Shown here: positions 25,544-32,693 of the stretch, piece after piece
How the letters are laid out: every line of letters starts with the position of its first letter
Numbering within the stretch: the first letter of the stretch is position 1
Origin: Actinomycetota bacterium
GTDB lineage: Bacteria; Actinomycetota; Thermoleophilia; Solirubrobacterales; Solirubrobacteraceae
DNA: 37,722 bases
Direction of reading: 5' to 3'
Assembly: GCA_009699505.1 (NCBI GenBank)
Contig: WLOB01000002.1
Coordinates: forward strand, 1-37,722
Translations under genes and position numbers: made by a program
The notes under the pieces: generated by a model
What the model was told of the DNA's origin: nothing
The model's input: only the letters and a program-made list of their open reading frames with translations
Database searches by the model: none

Positions 25544-26635
25544 TCAGGAGCCGGGCGCCCGGCTCCAGACCAGCTCGCCGACGTCCGGCGGGGTCCTCGT
25601 GATCCCGACCTGCGCCTCCCAGGCCGACCAGGTGCGCATCGTCGCGCGGTCCAGCGTGCCGGTGCGGCCCTGCTCGTCGCGGAAGGCCGGCTTGACGGCC
25701 GCGAGCTGCTGCTCCGTCGTCGCGGGATCGATGCTCCGGTCGCCCGAGCCGCTGCGCAGCGCGTCGACGGCCTCGTCGTCGTCGCCGGCCGGGGTGGAGG
25801 CGACCGCGCGGTAGCCCTGGGCGACGACGTCGGCGAAGCGCGCGACCGCGTCGCCGCGCTCGCGCAGCGTCCTCGACGTCGCGACGACCAGGAGCTCGGG
25901 GTAGCGCGGCGCGCCGAACGCGTCGAGGCGGAAGACCTTCGTGCGCGGCCGGCGGGCGGTCAGGGCGACGCCCTCGGCGTTCCAGAAGCCGATGGCCGCG
26001 GCGACCTTGCCCGAGACGACGGAGGCGACGGCCTCGAAGCCGATCGTCGCGCGCTTCACGCGTTCCGGGTCGCCGCCGTCGCCGCGGACGATCTGGTCCA
26101 GCGCGGCGTCGTCGCTCGGCAGCCCGGTCACGCCGACGGTGCGCCCCTCGAGCTCGCGGGGGCGGGTGACGTCGGGGGAGGCCAGCACGGCGGCGAGCGG
26201 CCGCTGCACGATGGCGCCGACGGCGACGAGGTCCGCGCCCTCCTGACGGGCGAGCGCGACGTCGTGGATGTCCATGATCGCCAGGTCGGTGCGGCCCGCC
26301 GACAGGAGCTTCGCGCCGTCGGCGCCCGAGCCGGGCACCCGGATCCGCACGGCCAGGCCGGCCTTCGAGAACAGCCCGCGCTCCTGCGCGACGTAGAGGC
26401 CCGTGTGGACCGCGTTGGGCGCGAAGTCGAGCGTGAGGTTCAGGGACGTGGTGGCCTGCGTGCTCGTCGCCGGGGTCGCCCCGGCGTCGTCCCCGCCGTC
26501 GGAGCCCCCGCAGCCCGCCAGCACGAGGGCGCCCACCGCGAGCGCCGTCAGCCGGACCACCACCCCTGACGATCGTCGGCGGGGGGCCGATCGGTCGTGG
26601 GTGGCCGGGCTCCGGGGGTCCTGCGATCCAGTCAT
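25544..26635 (-). CDS. ABC-transporter substrate-binding lipoprotein, NMT1/THI5-like
   Basis: From ATG 26635 the protein has 363 residues. An Arg-rich n-region, a hydrophobic core and the lipobox LVLAGC (GALVLAGCGGSDGG) mark a lipoprotein, and an Asp/Thr linker follows. The periplasmic-binding fold shows LTLDFAPNAVHTGLYVAQERGLFSKAGLAVRI, GRTDLAIMDIHDVALARQEG, VGVTGLPSDDAALDQIV and AAIGFWNAEGVAL, which place it in the SsuA/THI5/NMT1 group that binds sulfonates, taurine or pyrimidine precursors. No permease or ATPase gene lies nearby, so it is an orphan binding protein in this window. The N-terminus could be shorter, starting at the GTGGTGGTCC 24 codons downstream. Confidence 0.87.
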   Translation of the reverse strand: MTGSQDPRSPATHDRSAPRRRSSGVVVRLTALAVGALVLAGCGGSDGGDDAGATPATSTQATTSLNLTLDFAPNAVHTGLYVAQERGLFSKAGLAVRIRVPGSGADGAKLLSAGRTDLAIMDIHDVALARQEGADLVAVGAIVQRPLAAVLASPDVTRPRELEGRTVGVTGLPSDDAALDQIVRGDGGDPERVKRATIGFEAVASVVSGKVAAAIGFWNAEGVALTARRPRTKVFRLDAFGAPRYPELLVVATSRTLRERGDAVARFADVVAQGYRAVASTPAGDDDEAVDALRSGSGDRSIDPATTEQQLAAVKPAFRDEQGRTGTLDRATMRTWSAWEAQVGITRTPPDVGELVWSRAPGS

Positions 26636-26760
26636 GCGGGGAAGAGTGGCGGACCGCCGCACCGCGCGCCGTCCCGCCCCGGCGCCGCGCCCACCGGGCG
26701 GTGCCCGGGCGGCCGGTCGGACGGGGCACGGGAGCACGGCGGCGGACGGCGCCTGCCCGT

Positions 26761-27326: not shown

Positions 27327-30101
27327 TCAGCGGACCCGCAGGGCGACCCGGCGGGTCCGCGTCTCGCCGCCGACCGTCGTGCGCACCGTGATGCGGTGCA
27401 CGCCGCGGCGGGCGCGCGTCCCGACGCGGATCCCGAGGCGGGCGACGCCGAGGCGCCCCGCCCGGACCGTTCCGAGGCGCACGGTGCGGGTGCCGCCGGC
27501 GCGCAGCGACGCCGGGAGGCCGACGCGGACGCGGGCGCCGCGCAGCGGGCCCGTCGTCGCGTTGCGCACGCCGACCCGGATGCGCGCGAGCGCCCCGCGG
27601 CGGACGCGCGTGGTGACGTCGACCGAGATGCTGACGCGGCCGTCGTCGCCCCTCTCGCCCTTCGGCCCCTGCGGGCCGGCCGGCCCGGCGGGGCCCGGTG
27701 CGCCGGTCGCCCCGGTCGGGCCGGGGACGCCCTGCGGGCCGGCCGGCCCGGTCGGACCGGCGGGGCCCTGCGGTCCCGTCGGCTCGGCGGGGGTGCCCGG
27801 CGCGGCGTCCTTCAGCGTCACGACCGGCGGGTCGTGGTCCGAGACGTGCAGGCCGAGCGACGGCTGCTCGGCGTAGTCGTTGTCGAGGTGCGCGTAGCGG
27901 ACGTCCGTGACCTGCGGCAGCAGGTCGGCGGTGACGAGCGCGTGGTCCAGCGTCTGCAGGCGGCCCTGGAACGCGAAGGAGTAGCGCTCCTGCTCCGGGG
28001 CGCGGTCCCACAGGTTCGTCAGGGTGCCGCCCTGCTGCATCACGGCCAGCGGCGACTCGTCCTCGAACGCGTTGAGATCGCCGACGGCCATGACGGAGCC
28101 GCCGGCCGCCTTCACGCGCTCCGCCTCGGTGCGCACGATCCGCGCCTGCTGCTCGCGGCACGTGTCCGCCGAGGACTTCGACGCGAAGTGGTTGGAAATC
28201 ACGGTGAGCGGCAGGCCGCCCGGGAGCGTCACGTCGAGCGCGAGCGGCGGGCGGTCGGAGACCTGGCCGGTCGTGTCGCCGCAGCGGGTGCCCGTGTCGG
28301 CGGGGACACCGAGGCCGAGCTGCCGCGGCACGCCGCGGACGCGCACGCCGTCCCTGACGAGGAAGCCGACGTCGATGCCGCGCGAGTCGAAGCCCTCCTT
28401 CGCGTAGGCGGTGTAGCCGCCGATCCTCGTGGCGAGGTCCTGCAGGACGGCCTGGCTGTCCTTGACCGGGACACCGGTCTTGCGCTGGCTGTCCCCGACC
28501 TCCTGGACCGCGACGACCTCGGGGGCCTTCAGGCGGGTGCCGATGGCGGCGGCGAGGCCGTCGAGCTTCTCCTCGTACTGCGCCTGGGTGACGGTCCCCA
28601 GGTCGAGGTCCGCACCGGGCGGGAACAGGTTCTCGACGTTGAAGCCGGAGATCCGTGCCTGCCCGGCGGGCTTCGCGGGCAGGTCGTACACCGCGGGCAC
28701 CTCGGGGTCGCGGGTGACCGTCGGCAGGGTCCCGACCTGCGGGGTGAGCGTGTAGTTGTAGAACGAGAAGCCGAGCGGGCCGACGGCGTTCTCGACCTTC
28801 GAGAACAGGTCGCCGCGCACGAGCGTGGAGGAGTCGGGCCGGTCGTACGGGTTGGCCGGGTCGCCGGCGCCGGCGTCGTCGATCAGCGCGATGTTCGAGA
28901 CGGCCGGGTCCTGCCGGAAGATGCGGCCGCGGTCGAGGCCGGGCGTGACGAAGAGCTCGCCGAACTTCGTCGTGCCCCCGCTGTTGGCGATCCCGACGGG
29001 CAGGGCGACCCGCATGCCCTCGAGCGTCTCGTAGTAGCCGCGGGTGCCGTCCGTCAGGGGGTTCGGGTTCGTCTGCGCCTTCGCCCGTGCCGTGTCCAGC
29101 ACGACGGGGGCGGGCAGCGCGGCCTCGCCGAGCACGACGGGCTCGGTGTCGCGCTTCTCGGCGATCATCGTCAGACCGAACTTCTCCTTGGCCTGCCCGA
29201 CGATCCGGACCCGCTTGCCGAGCAGGTCGGCCCGCCGGCCGGTGGGGCCGTCGACGAAGCCGACGAAGACGCCCTCCGACGTGCTCGGGTCGGCGTCCTC
29301 GGCGCCCGGGACGGTCTGGACGTAGATCCCGGCGTCCTCGGGGAACGTGCCGGTGAAGCTCGCGCCGTCCTCGTCGTCCACGCCGGTGACGACGCCCTCG
29401 ATCGTGACCTCCTGGCCGGCCTTCGGGGTGGTGGCCCCGGACCCCTGGACCTGGCCGATCGGCGTGACGCCGCCCGTCGGCGGCGGGGTGGTCGTGCCGC
29501 CCGAGCCCTGCGGGTTCGCGGCGGCGACGGTCAGGTCGTCCTGGTTGGCATCGGTGTCCTGGGCCTCGGCGGCGCCCTTGCGGTGCGCGGAGTCCCCCGA
29601 CGTGCCCGCGAGCGTCGCCAGGTCGATGCCCGTGCCCTCGCGGCAGGGGCTGGTCGCGCTGCCGAGGCCGTCGACGACGGTCGTGTCGGCGGTCACGATC
29701 CGTGCACCGGACTGCCCGCTGTTGCTGAAGCCCGTCGTGTAGACGGCGTCGGGCGTGGCCGCGCCGGAGTAGCCGCTCGCGGCGGTGTTGGCGAAGAGCC
29801 AGCGGCCGCCGGCCGGGAGCGTCGTGCCGGCGGGGACGGCGACCCGGTCGCTCGCCGCGCCCGAGCCGGACGCGCAGCCCTGCAGGCGCCAGCCGCCGAT
29901 GTCGACGGCACCGGTCGACGCGTTGACGAGCTCGACGAACTCGTCGTTGGCGCCGGAGGCCCCGCCGAAGCGGGCCTCGCTGATCACGACGCCGGAGGTG
30001 GACGCCGAGGCGACGGTCGGCACGGCGGCGGCGAGGCCGAGCGCGGCGACCGCGGCCGCCGCGAGCGGGAGACGGCGGGAGGGGGAGGGACCTGGGGACA
30101 C
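27327..30101 (-). CDS. Large secreted ExeM/NucH-like nuclease with lamin-tail domain and collagen-like segment
   Basis: The protein has 924 residues. A signal peptide (about 1-33) ends in VPTVASAS. A lamin-tail domain (about 36-150) contains [21 protein letters not shown] and IGGWRLQGC. An OB-fold-like domain (about 214-330) contains [19 protein letters not shown] and GIYVQTVPG. An endonuclease/exonuclease/phosphatase domain (about 480-762) shows [11 protein letters not shown], the catalytic Glu in [25 protein letters not shown] and the terminal SDHDPPVV. Next come about 15 Gly-X-Y triplets (about 770-818; [14 protein letters not shown] and so on), and the C-terminus (about 830-924) is an Arg/Val-rich beta domain that may be a cell-surface module. 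The enzyme should degrade extracellular DNA for phosphate or biofilm turnover. GTG at 30101 has GAGGT just upstream. Confidence 0.88.
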
Positions 30102-30295: not shown

Positions 30296-31069
30296 TCAGC
30301 CGAGCCGCGCGGCGGCGTCGTCCGCGCCGAAGAGGTCCTCGGACGCCGCGCGCACGAGGACCGCCGCGCCGGGACCGTCCTCGGCGGTGACGAGGTCGCC
30401 GAGCCCGCCGACGACCACCGCGGGCTGCCCCGAGGCCTTGCGCCGGGCGAGGTCGGCGGCGGAGGCGACGTGGTCGGCGACGGCGATGACGGTGGCCTGC
30501 AGCTCGCGGCCGTGCCGGTCGACCGCGCCGCGCTCGTCCGCGACGGCGACGAGGCCCGCGCAGCCGATCGCGACCTCCGCCTGGCCGTGGCGCCAGGCCC
30601 GGCCGAACGAGTCGGCCACGACGACGGCGGGCCGGCCGGGCAGGGCGTCGCGCAGGCGGCGGGCAGACGCGTCGGGATCGGCGGGCAGGGTGACGGCCCA
30701 GCCCTCCGCGACGTTCGAGCGGTCGACCCCCGCGTTCGCGCAGACGAAGCCGTGGTGCGTGCGGCAGATGAGGACCCCGCGGCGGGCGCGGACGATCTCG
30801 GCGGTCCCGTCCAGGACGACCTGCACCAGCTCGGGCTCCTTCTCGAGCTCGGCGGCCAGGGCGGCGGCACGCGGCGAGACGTCGACCCGCGCGAGCTCGA
30901 CGAGCGCGCCCTCGGCCTTCGACACGACCTTGTGCGAGACCACGACGCAGTCGTCGCGCTCGAACGGCCGGCCGCCGTTGGCGGCGAGGACGAGGCCCGC
31001 CAGGTCGTCGCCGGGGCGGACCTCGGGCAGCGCGTCGAGGGCGCGGACCGACAGCGACGGGCTCGGCAC
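30296..31069 (-). CDS. cofE: Coenzyme F420-0:L-glutamate ligase
   Basis: This 257-residue protein has the CofE/FbiB-N fold. It shows [32 protein letters not shown] (nucleotide and metal site), [18 protein letters not shown] and [21 protein letters not shown], all signatures of GTP-dependent F420-0 gamma-glutamyl ligases. It adds glutamates to F420-0 in the cytosol. It lacks the C-terminal FMN-dependent reductase domain fused to it in mycobacterial FbiB. It is the last gene of cofD-cofC-cofE, starting at a GTG 14 bases after cofC. Confidence 0.93.
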
Positions 31070-31083
31070 GACGGGGGCCGCGG

Positions 31084-31734
31084 TCAGAGGATCCGCGGCA
31101 GCAGGCCGCGCGTGTGCGACGCCCCGCCGCGGACCTCGTCCAGGCGGGTCTGCAGGGCGGCGAGGTCGTCGCCGGTGTCCACGTCGAGCATGATCGTCAG
31201 CGGCTCGGACTCGAAGACCGCGGCGCCCGCGGCCTCGCCGGCGGCGGTGTGCCGGGCGCGGCTGCCCTCGCCGAAGGACGCGGCCATGACGTCGGGCGGG
31301 GTCAGCACGAGCGCGTTCGTGCCGTCGCCGTGCCGGTCGGGCACGATCGTGACCTCGCGGCCCTCGGGCGCGGCGCTGAGCAGCCCGTCGATCTCCGCCG
31401 GGTCGATCGCCGGGGTGTCGGCGGGCAGCAGGATGATCCGCTCCGCCCCCTTCGACAGCGCCATGCCGACGCCCAGGGCGGCGGCCTCGCTGTGGCCGAG
31501 GTCGCGCTGGTCCATGAGGACCTCGGCGTTGTAGTTCACCGCGATCTGCTCCGCGATGGGCTCGCCGGTGACGACGATGACGGCGTCGACGAGCTCGGCG
31601 CGCCGGAGCGCGATCAGGACGTCGGTGACCATGGCCTGCATGAGGGCCACGCGGGAGCGGGCCGGCAGCCGGTCGGCCAGCCGCGTCTTCGCCGCGTTGA
31701 AGCGCTTGACCGGGACGATCGCGATGGTCTTCAT
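31084..31734 (-). CDS. cofC: 2-phospho-L-lactate/phosphoenolpyruvate guanylyltransferase (CofC/FbiD)
   Basis: This 216-residue nucleotidyltransferase begins [21 protein letters not shown] and has [37 protein letters not shown] and the C-terminal [13 protein letters not shown], all typical of CofC. It activates 2-phospholactate or, in actinobacteria, phosphoenolpyruvate with GTP to give the donor used by CofD. It overlaps the end of cofD by ATGA and precedes cofE. Confidence 0.93.
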
Positions 31735-32693
31735 GCCGCGGTCCCCGCGTTCGTGGAGAGGGAGGAGCAGAGGTCGAGCACCTCGGCGGCGACGGACGCG
31801 CGGGTGTCCGCGTCGCCCATCAGGACGTTCGCGGTGCGCACGGCGATCCCGGGGATCTCGACCGTCTCGTCCGTCAGCAGCCCGTCGAGCAGCCCGTCGT
31901 ACATCCGGGCGACGCCGCGCGCGTCCATGTCGACGCCGGCCCAGCGCAGGAACGACTCCGTGGGGCCCTTCCGCACCTGCCCGTCGACGAGGGGGGCGAC
32001 GGCGACGACGGGCGCGGCGGTGTCGCGCAGCGCCTCGCGGACGCCGGGGACGGCGAGGATCGGGCTGATGGAGATCACGGGGTTGGAGGGGCCCACGACG
32101 ACGGCGCGGGCGGTGCGGATGGCCTGCAGCACCTCGGGGGTGGCCACCGCGTCCTCCGCGCCGCGGAACGCGACGTCCTGGACGACGGGGGCGGGCGTCT
32201 CGCGCAGGCGGCGGATCATGAACTCCTGGAAGTCCCACCAGCGGTCGTCCGCGCGCACCTGGGTGCGGACGGGGGAGTCCGAGGGCGGCAGGACGTGCGC
32301 GGCGACGCCGTAGGCGGCGGCCGCCTCGGCGAGCACCTCCGTCGGGCGGGCGCCCTCCGCGAGGCGGCGGGCCCGGCGGATGCAGAGCGCCAGGTCGCGG
32401 TCGCCGAGGTTGAACCAGACGTCCTCGCCGAGGGCGCGCAGGGCGTCCATGACGGCGAAGGTGTCGTCCGCGAGGCCCCAGCCGCGCTCGTCGATCCGGT
32501 CGGCGAGCCAGAACGTGCAGAGGTCGGGGTCCGGGCTGACCAGGCCACCGTGGACCTCGGTGTCGTCGCCGGTGTTGGCGATCACGACGAGGTCGGCGCC
32601 GGCGTGGTCGAGGAGCCCGCGGGCCAGCTTGGCCCCGCCGGTCCCCCCGGCGAGCACGACGACGGGGGCGTCGGGCAGCTCCGGGACGCTCAC
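31731..32693 (-). CDS. cofD: 2-phospho-L-lactate transferase CofD/FbiA (F420-0 synthesis)
   Basis: This 320-residue protein starts with the hallmark VVVLAGGTGGAKLARGLLDHAG, then VVIANTGDDTEVHGGLVSPDPDL, LGDRDLALCIRR and VVVGPSNPVISISPILAVPGVREAL. It transfers the lactyl- or dehydro-lactyl-phosphate group onto Fo to form F420-0. The operon order cofD-cofC-cofE is compact, with a 4-base overlap into cofC. The GTG at 32693 overlaps the stop of a possible 39-codon leader ORF (GTGA). The best promoter lies 125 bases upstream, before that ORF. Confidence 0.94.
   Translation of the reverse strand: MSVPELPDAPVVVLAGGTGGAKLARGLLDHAGADLVVIANTGDDTEVHGGLVSPDPDLCTFWLADRIDERGWGLADDTFAVMDALRALGEDVWFNLGDRDLALCIRRARRLAEGARPTEVLAEAAAAYGVAAHVLPPSDSPVRTQVRADDRWWDFQEFMIRRLRETPAPVVQDVAFRGAEDAVATPEVLQAIRTARAVVVGPSNPVISISPILAVPGVREALRDTAAPVVAVAPLVDGQVRKGPTESFLRWAGVDMDARGVARMYDGLLDGLLTDETVEIPGIAVRTANVLMGDADTRASVAAEVLDLCSSLSTNAGTAA

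What the first reader, a model, noticed from the sequence alone, without database searches (positions are those of the whole stretch)
27640..27800. Collagen-like Gly-X-Y segment inside a bacterial extracellular nuclease
About 15 uninterrupted Gly-X-Y triplets rich in Pro lie between the nuclease domain and a C-terminal beta domain. Collagen-like stretches trimerise, so the nuclease could be displayed as a trimer on a stalk at the cell surface. I know of no described ExeM/NucH nuclease with this arrangement.
Basis: partly seen in the sequence, partly recalled or inferred. Interest (0 to 1): 0.6.

Follow-up and report, generated by a model that had tools for sequence, protein, structure and literature searches.

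The report
Collagen-stalked secreted nuclease in Patulibacter
A bacterium of the genus Patulibacter carries a secreted DNA-cutting enzyme whose tail is a short collagen rod capped by a very positively charged domain, and the same rod-plus-cap tail is reused on many other secreted enzymes of its relatives, which suggests an undescribed way of keeping enzymes at the cell surface.

Summary
On the minus strand a 924-residue protein (window 27327-30101) carries 15 uninterrupted Gly-X-Y triplets (27642-27776) between an EEP nuclease domain with intact motifs and a C-terminal beta domain; shuffles of the same protein never exceed 7. The genome is a Patulibacter MAG. The nuclease is a divergent relative of ExeM/NucH, not a member by NCBI's cut-off. 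Collagen is present in all 5 Patulibacter and both Conexibacter orthologs found (one supported clade) and absent from about 35 other actinobacterial homologs. The nuclease is not special: Patulibacter genomes hold 11-34 collagen matches each, and a repeated C-terminal cassette [optional choice-of-anchor D]-[collagen]-[basic cap, pI 12] sits on phosphoesterases, phytase-like enzymes, GDPD, a penicillin amidase and others. In the window protein the cap is NEW3/Ig-like, with 27 Arg and 2 acidic residues on an otherwise acidic protein. Best-supported reading: a collagen stalk ending in a polycationic head that holds exoenzymes non-covalently on anionic envelope polymers, probably as trimers, resembling in function the Legionella Lcl head or collagen-tailed acetylcholinesterase. 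Trimerisation and surface retention are inferred, not shown. New variant of a known kind.

The parts
27327..30101 (-). Whole gene: LTD-OB/EEP nuclease with collagen stalk and basic C-terminal cap (924 aa, GTG start)
   Evidence: orthologs
30000..30101 (-). Signal peptide, residues about 1-34 ([34 protein letters not shown])
   Evidence: read from the sequence: basic n-region, hydrophobic stretch, A-S-A cleavage-like site; no prediction tool run
29664..30008 (-). Lamin tail domain, residues 32-146
   Evidence: Pfam PF00932, 45.6 bits
27819..29465 (-). OB-like region plus EEP nuclease, residues 213-761, homologous along its length to solved PDB chains 9sf8/9sf9
   Evidence: NF033681 129 bits, below cut-off 300; EEP motifs FNxEN, QE, NH, GDLN, LDH, SDHDPP conserved in the alignment
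27642..27776 (-). Collagen-like segment, 15 Gly-X-Y triplets (residues 776-820), ending in charged GPKGERGDD
27330..27638 (-). C-terminal basic beta domain (cap), residues 822-924, pI 12, 27 Arg, 2 acidic; NEW3/Ig-like

Best explanation
The protein is exported, its N-terminal LTD-OB-EEP part degrades extracellular nucleic acid, and its C-terminal part is a transferable retention cassette: a short collagen stalk ending in a strongly cationic NEW3/Ig-like cap. The most likely working is that three chains wind into a triple helix, the three caps sit together at its end, and the cluster of about 80 arginines holds the enzyme electrostatically on anionic polymers of the producer's own envelope or matrix (wall glycopolymers, capsule, extracellular DNA). 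This keeps the nuclease, and the phosphoesterases and other exoenzymes with the same kind of tail, near the cell so that released nucleotides and phosphate are not lost. Shown here: domain order, Gly-X-Y continuity, intact catalytic motifs, charge asymmetry, clustering of the tail in one clade of this nuclease, and reuse of the collagen-cap pairing on unrelated enzymes. Inferred: secretion, triple helix, trimer, the ligand of the cap, and the nutritional role.
For: Gly-X-Y run far beyond chance, with Pro at X and a charged KGE/RGD end; a crude stability index (host-guest values recalled from memory) is 39.0 against 29.8 +/- 1.6 for random Gly-X-Y of the same composition. The cap has pI 12 on a protein otherwise of pI 4.6. 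In Patulibacter, 25 of 29 collagen segments lying at least 300 residues into the frame are followed by a tail of pI 11.5 or more, against 0 of 24 in the small collagen proteins. 24 of 36 choice-of-anchor D matches in the genus are followed by collagen within 34-193 bases. Carriers include PF04185 phosphoesterase, phytase-like, NAGPA + metallophosphoesterase, GDPD and penicillin amidase. Collagen-bearing nucleases form one clade (99/100, with one row of unknown tail). Lcl of Legionella shows that a short bacterial collagen with a basic C-terminal head forms a trimer that binds polyanions (PMC11162425). ExeM itself is envelope-associated (PMC6085458).
Against: No recognised trimerisation domain; the model is of a single chain and gives the collagen segment pLDDT about 30. 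The stalk is short (11 triplets in P. americanus). Caps are not one homologous family (NEW3-like, a two-Cys type and others share charge and position), which argues against one specific trimer interface. High-GC genomes readily make Arg-rich proteins: 13 of 93 crudely chosen control frames also end with pI 11.5 or more. Protein-level comparisons count orthologs and so are not independent. Nothing here shows that the protein is secreted or surface-bound.
Confidence: 0.5

Rival explanations
1. The Gly-X-Y run is only an extended, protease-resistant spacer between enzyme and cap; the protein is a monomer, and the cap alone tethers it or stabilises the C-terminus.
For: Short and variable length between orthologs (11, 15, 23 + 7, at least 35 triplets); caps of several unrelated types; no known trimerisation domain; another homolog has a Pro/Gly-rich linker at the same place (L046 PPPGAGSPPGAG).
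Against: Perfect Gly register with Pro preferentially at X and KGE/KGD pairs would not be needed for a spacer; in the family-wide search the cap matches of 29 bits or more always come with collagen.
Confidence: 0.3
2. The cap is a substrate-binding head: its arginines bind DNA, raising the nuclease's affinity for extracellular DNA rather than tethering it to the cell.
For: 27 Arg against 2 acidic residues on an otherwise acidic nuclease; Foldseek matches of about 110 columns include AlkC, a DNA glycosylase.
Against: The same kind of basic tail sits on enzymes with unrelated substrates such as penicillin amidase and GDPD.
Confidence: 0.15
3. Artefact of composition: a GC-rich repeat or misread frame.
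For: Window is 76% GC; Gly and Pro codons are GC-rich, and antisense frames also show Gly-Pro runs.
Against: Frame conserved in orthologs at up to 78% identity; Pfam match above cut-off; orthologs keep the Gly-X-Y segment in register while other GC-rich actinobacterial homologs lack it.
Confidence: 0.02

Closest known systems
ExeM (Shewanella oneidensis) / Xds / NucH extracellular nucleases
   Same: Signal peptide, lamin tail, OB-like region and EEP domain in the same order; ExeM's C-terminus is a putative membrane anchor and the enzyme is envelope-associated (PMC6085458).
   Different: ExeM ends in GG + transmembrane helix + RRRR; here a collagen segment and a soluble basic cap take that place. 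Score 129 bits v. NCBI cut-off 300.
Legionella collagen-like protein Lcl
   Same: Short collagen region followed by a C-terminal head; the head is trimeric, has a basic surface and binds polyanions (PMC11162425).
   Different: Lcl is an adhesin with an N-terminal helix and no enzyme; the NCBIfam match of the window protein to Lcl covers the collagen only, so the heads are not shown to be related.
Scl1/Scl2 and other bacterial collagen-like surface proteins
   Same: Gly-X-Y region between two non-collagen domains; surface display is the known role (PMC8968730).
   Different: Scl proteins have an N-terminal trimerising V domain and a C-terminal cell-wall anchor; none here, and the cargo is an enzyme.
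Collagen-tailed acetylcholinesterase (ColQ)
   Same: Works alike: a collagen tail keeps an exoenzyme in the matrix; heparin-binding basic sites in ColQ are from own knowledge.
   Different: Animal protein with the collagen as a separate chain; no homology claimed.
Choice-of-anchor D domain proteins (NCBIfam NF012200)
   Same: Orthologs of the nuclease and many other carriers have this domain just before the collagen.
   Different: Named for variable anchoring tails; collagen plus basic cap is not among the anchors I know of (own knowledge). The window protein itself lacks the domain.

Membership tests
ExeM/NucH extracellular nuclease (NF033681) | Score at or above NCBI curated cut-off of 300 bits | tested here: not met
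   129.1 bits over residues 235-740
ExeM/NucH extracellular nuclease (NF033681) | LTD - OB-like - EEP order | tested here: met
ExeM (NF033680) | C-terminal GG + transmembrane helix + basic cluster | tested here: not met
   C-terminus read directly...TRRVALRVR, no hydrophobic helix; NF033680 90.5 bits v. cut-off 1300
EEP (DNase I-like) nuclease superfamily | Pfam match above cut-off and conserved metal/catalytic motifs | tested here: met
   PF03372 32.3 v. 24.5 bits; motifs; EEP structures top the Foldseek list
EEP (DNase I-like) nuclease superfamily | Nuclease activity on DNA/RNA | not testable with these tools
   needs purified protein
Bacterial collagen-like protein | Uninterrupted Gly-X-Y, PF01391 above cut-off | tested here: met
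   15 triplets, 32.0 v. 27.2 bits
Bacterial collagen-like protein | Forms a triple helix / trimer | not testable with these tools
   no multimer prediction offered; single-chain model uninformative in the segment
LPXTG-anchored collagen adhesins (Scl) | C-terminal LPXTG sorting signal | tested here: not met
   absent in the sequence; scores 28-35 v. cut-offs of 325 and more
NEW3 / NPCBM_assoc (PF10633) for the cap | Match above Pfam cut-off | tested here: inconclusive
   window cap 14.2 v. 24.4 bits, but homologous caps L171, L172, L174 and L194 pass (25.1-29.4 bits)
Choice-of-anchor D (NF012200) | Domain present before the collagen | tested here: not met
   absent in the window protein; present above cut-off in orthologs L013 and L016

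The most novel reading that the evidence does not exclude
Patulibacter and relatives use a sortase-independent, non-covalent anchoring system: a C-terminal collagen triple helix capped by a trimeric polycationic domain, transferable between enzymes, that mounts a whole set of exoenzymes (many of them phosphoesterases, plus a nuclease) as trimers on the cell's anionic envelope.
Probability: 0.35. Interest if true: 0.72.

Novelty: new variant of a known kind. Interest (0 to 1): 0.5.

Why it matters
Bacterial collagens are described mainly as adhesins, spore hairs and phage tail parts (own knowledge); a short collagen rod reused as the mounting post of many secreted enzymes would be a new use, and would explain how a lineage keeps exoenzymes near the cell through tails that show none of the standard sorting signals. 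It would also give many natural collagen-enzyme fusions for protein engineering.

Tried and rejected
Chance or frame artefact: rejected. Nuclease-specific invention: rejected, the tail is a genus-wide cassette. LPXTG, GG-CTERM or transmembrane anchoring: none seen in the sequence. Operon partner giving the function: neighbours are F420 biosynthesis genes (CofD, CofC, CofE) upstream and an NMT1/THI5-type binding protein, a GCV_T-like protein and an alcohol dehydrogenase downstream on the same strand; no clear link. Phosphate scavenging as the sole role of all carriers: not upheld, since penicillin amidase, RCC1, FG-GAP, lactonase-like and amidase carriers exist. A crude control for basic C-termini using open frames was too dirty to settle the point, so I relied on the within-collagen comparison. 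Several genome-search runs failed (10, 12, 15, 19, 25, 31). Literature searches for this architecture found nothing, within an open-access library only.

Full report
What is there. The window is a contig of a draft genome (75% complete) that the genome search places in one genus with Patulibacter americanus and P. minatonensis. On the minus strand, 27327-30101 encodes a 924-residue protein. It has a signal-like N-terminus, a lamin tail domain (32-146), an OB-like and EEP region (213-761), 15 Gly-X-Y triplets (776-820; window 27776-27642) and a C-terminal domain of about 103 residues. The run is not chance: the longest of 5000 shuffles had 7 triplets. The frame is secured by orthologs.

The enzyme. 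The EEP motifs FNxEN, QE, NH, GDLN, LDH and SDHDPP are conserved across the alignment. The region 213-761 matches the solved chains 9sf8/9sf9 end to end, and Foldseek puts the model's best matches among EEP structures. NCBI's ExeM/NucH model matches at 129 bits, under its cut-off of 300, so it is a relative of that family and not a member by that test. ExeM of Shewanella has the same LTD-OB-EEP order but ends in a putative membrane anchor, and was found almost only with the membrane fraction (PMC6085458).

Distribution of the tail on this nuclease. All five Patulibacter genomes in which the nuclease was found carry the collagen: the window, P. americanus L013/L051, P. minatonensis L049/L104, P. 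medicamentivorans L015/L052 and a MAG L014/L055. So do two Conexibacter orthologs, L016 and L023. Numbers of triplets differ: 15, 11, 23 + 7, at least 35, at least 11 (contig end), and about 15-20 in Conexibacter. Homologs from Rubrobacteraceae, Euzebyaceae and other Solirubrobacterales, and 21 ExeM/NucH genes read from other Actinomycetota, have none. In a tree of 23 nucleases the collagen-bearing ones plus L017, whose end is off the contig, form one clade (99/100), so one acquisition suffices. In P. americanus, P. minatonensis, P. medicamentivorans and Conexibacter a choice-of-anchor D (ASH-like) domain sits between nuclease and collagen; the window protein and L014 lack it. Two Patulibacter assemblies break inside the collagen, and orphan caps begin other contigs of the same genomes (L170, 83% identical to the window cap; L173).

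The tail is a cassette. Every Patulibacter genome searched (8 of 8) has 11-34 collagen matches. Reading the open frames showed two classes. Small proteins, many with a shared N-terminus (ALFVALGGTSYA...KDFKAGQLP), have collagen followed by a neutral or acidic domain. Large proteins have collagen near the C-terminus followed by 67-149 residues of pI about 12. Of collagen segments at least 300 residues into the frame, 25 of 29 have the basic tail; of those nearer the start with readable 5' end, 0 of 24 do (Fisher p 4e-11; orthologs are counted, so independence is overstated). Carriers include PF04185 phosphoesterase, phytase-like proteins, NAGPA + metallophosphoesterase, GDPD, penicillin amidase, FG-GAP, DUF4394 and lactonase-like proteins, and in other genera metallophosphoesterases, RCC1 propellers, DUF3616 and amidase. 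In the genus 24 of 36 choice-of-anchor D matches are followed by collagen within 34-193 bases on the same strand. A profile of the cap alone, holding no collagen, finds 21 matches of 29 bits or more with readable upstream sequence, in five genera; all 21 are directly preceded by collagen. Two weaker matches (17-23 bits) with basic tails but no collagen (L188, L193) suggest that the domain also exists alone.

The cap. The window cap has 27 Arg and 2 acidic residues (pI 12), while residues 31-770 have pI 4.6. The model gives seven strands at pLDDT about 78. Relatives L171, L172, L174 and L194 pass Pfam's cut-off for NEW3/NPCBM_assoc. The family profile weakly matches a region of a bacterial sialidase (E 0.08), and Foldseek lists Ig-like barrels of transglutaminase and complement, and AlkC, over about 110 columns (the output does not give the model's range, so assigning these to the cap is my inference). 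Other carriers use caps that are not evidently homologous but have the same charge, for example the two-Cys type of L002, L109 and L129 and the Conexibacter cap, so charge and position are conserved rather than one fold.

How it probably works. Established for one bacterial collagen: the Gly-X-Y region of Lcl is triple-helical (two melting steps, 38 and 45 C), and its basic C-terminal trimer binds sulphated polymers and may start helix folding (PMC11162425). By analogy, the cap end would nucleate the helix and carry about 80 positive charges per trimer. Because the tail is shared by enzymes with unrelated substrates, retention on the producer's own anionic envelope or matrix explains it better than substrate binding. 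For a nuclease and several phosphoesterases, staying close to the cell would keep nucleotides and phosphate near the uptake systems. Secretion, trimer, ligand and benefit are inferred.

Limits. The stability index uses host-guest values from memory. The crude background check shows that very basic C-termini are not rare among raw GC-rich frames, 13 of 93. Literature coverage is open-access only; within it no paper found describes collagen proteins of Patulibacter or a collagen-bearing ExeM/NucH nuclease.

Verdict. Observation confirmed; interpretation partly supported and widened. New variant of a known kind; the interest lies more in the cassette than in this one enzyme.

Noticed in passing
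G030 (P. minatonensis) L108, collagen at residues 133-196 of a 737-aa frame: A different arrangement: N-terminal basic stretch, then collagen, then a 5'-nucleotidase-like enzyme (FNDFHGN motif read by eye), i.e. collagen before the enzyme.
   Followed up: no
L001-L012 and L074-L136 (Patulibacter genomes): A second, small collagen-protein family shares an ALFVALGGTSYA...SVGS.QIK...KDFKAGQLP N-terminus followed by Gly-X-Y and varied globular C-termini, often many copies per genome.
   Followed up: partly
L014:4926-7463: The MAG ortholog most similar to the window nuclease (91% over the region used for the tree) has a different lamin-tail region at its N-terminus (VISQVYGGGGNTG...), suggesting a swap of the N-terminal domain.
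   Followed up: no
window 30296-32693, minus strand: F420 biosynthesis cluster CofD, CofC, CofE lies directly upstream of the nuclease and is conserved in three other Patulibacter contigs.
   Followed up: partly
window 25544-26737, minus strand: NMT1/THI5-type substrate-binding protein next downstream of the nuclease, syntenic in P. americanus L013.
   Followed up: partly
window 27642-27662: The collagen ends in KGERGDD, which contains an RGD tripeptide and a KGE pair of the kind that stabilises triple helices; no host is implied.
   Followed up: no
L014 end, L015 end, L170, L173: Draft assemblies of Patulibacter break inside collagen repeats, so collagen-bearing proteins are likely under-counted or truncated in public annotation.
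   Followed up: partly
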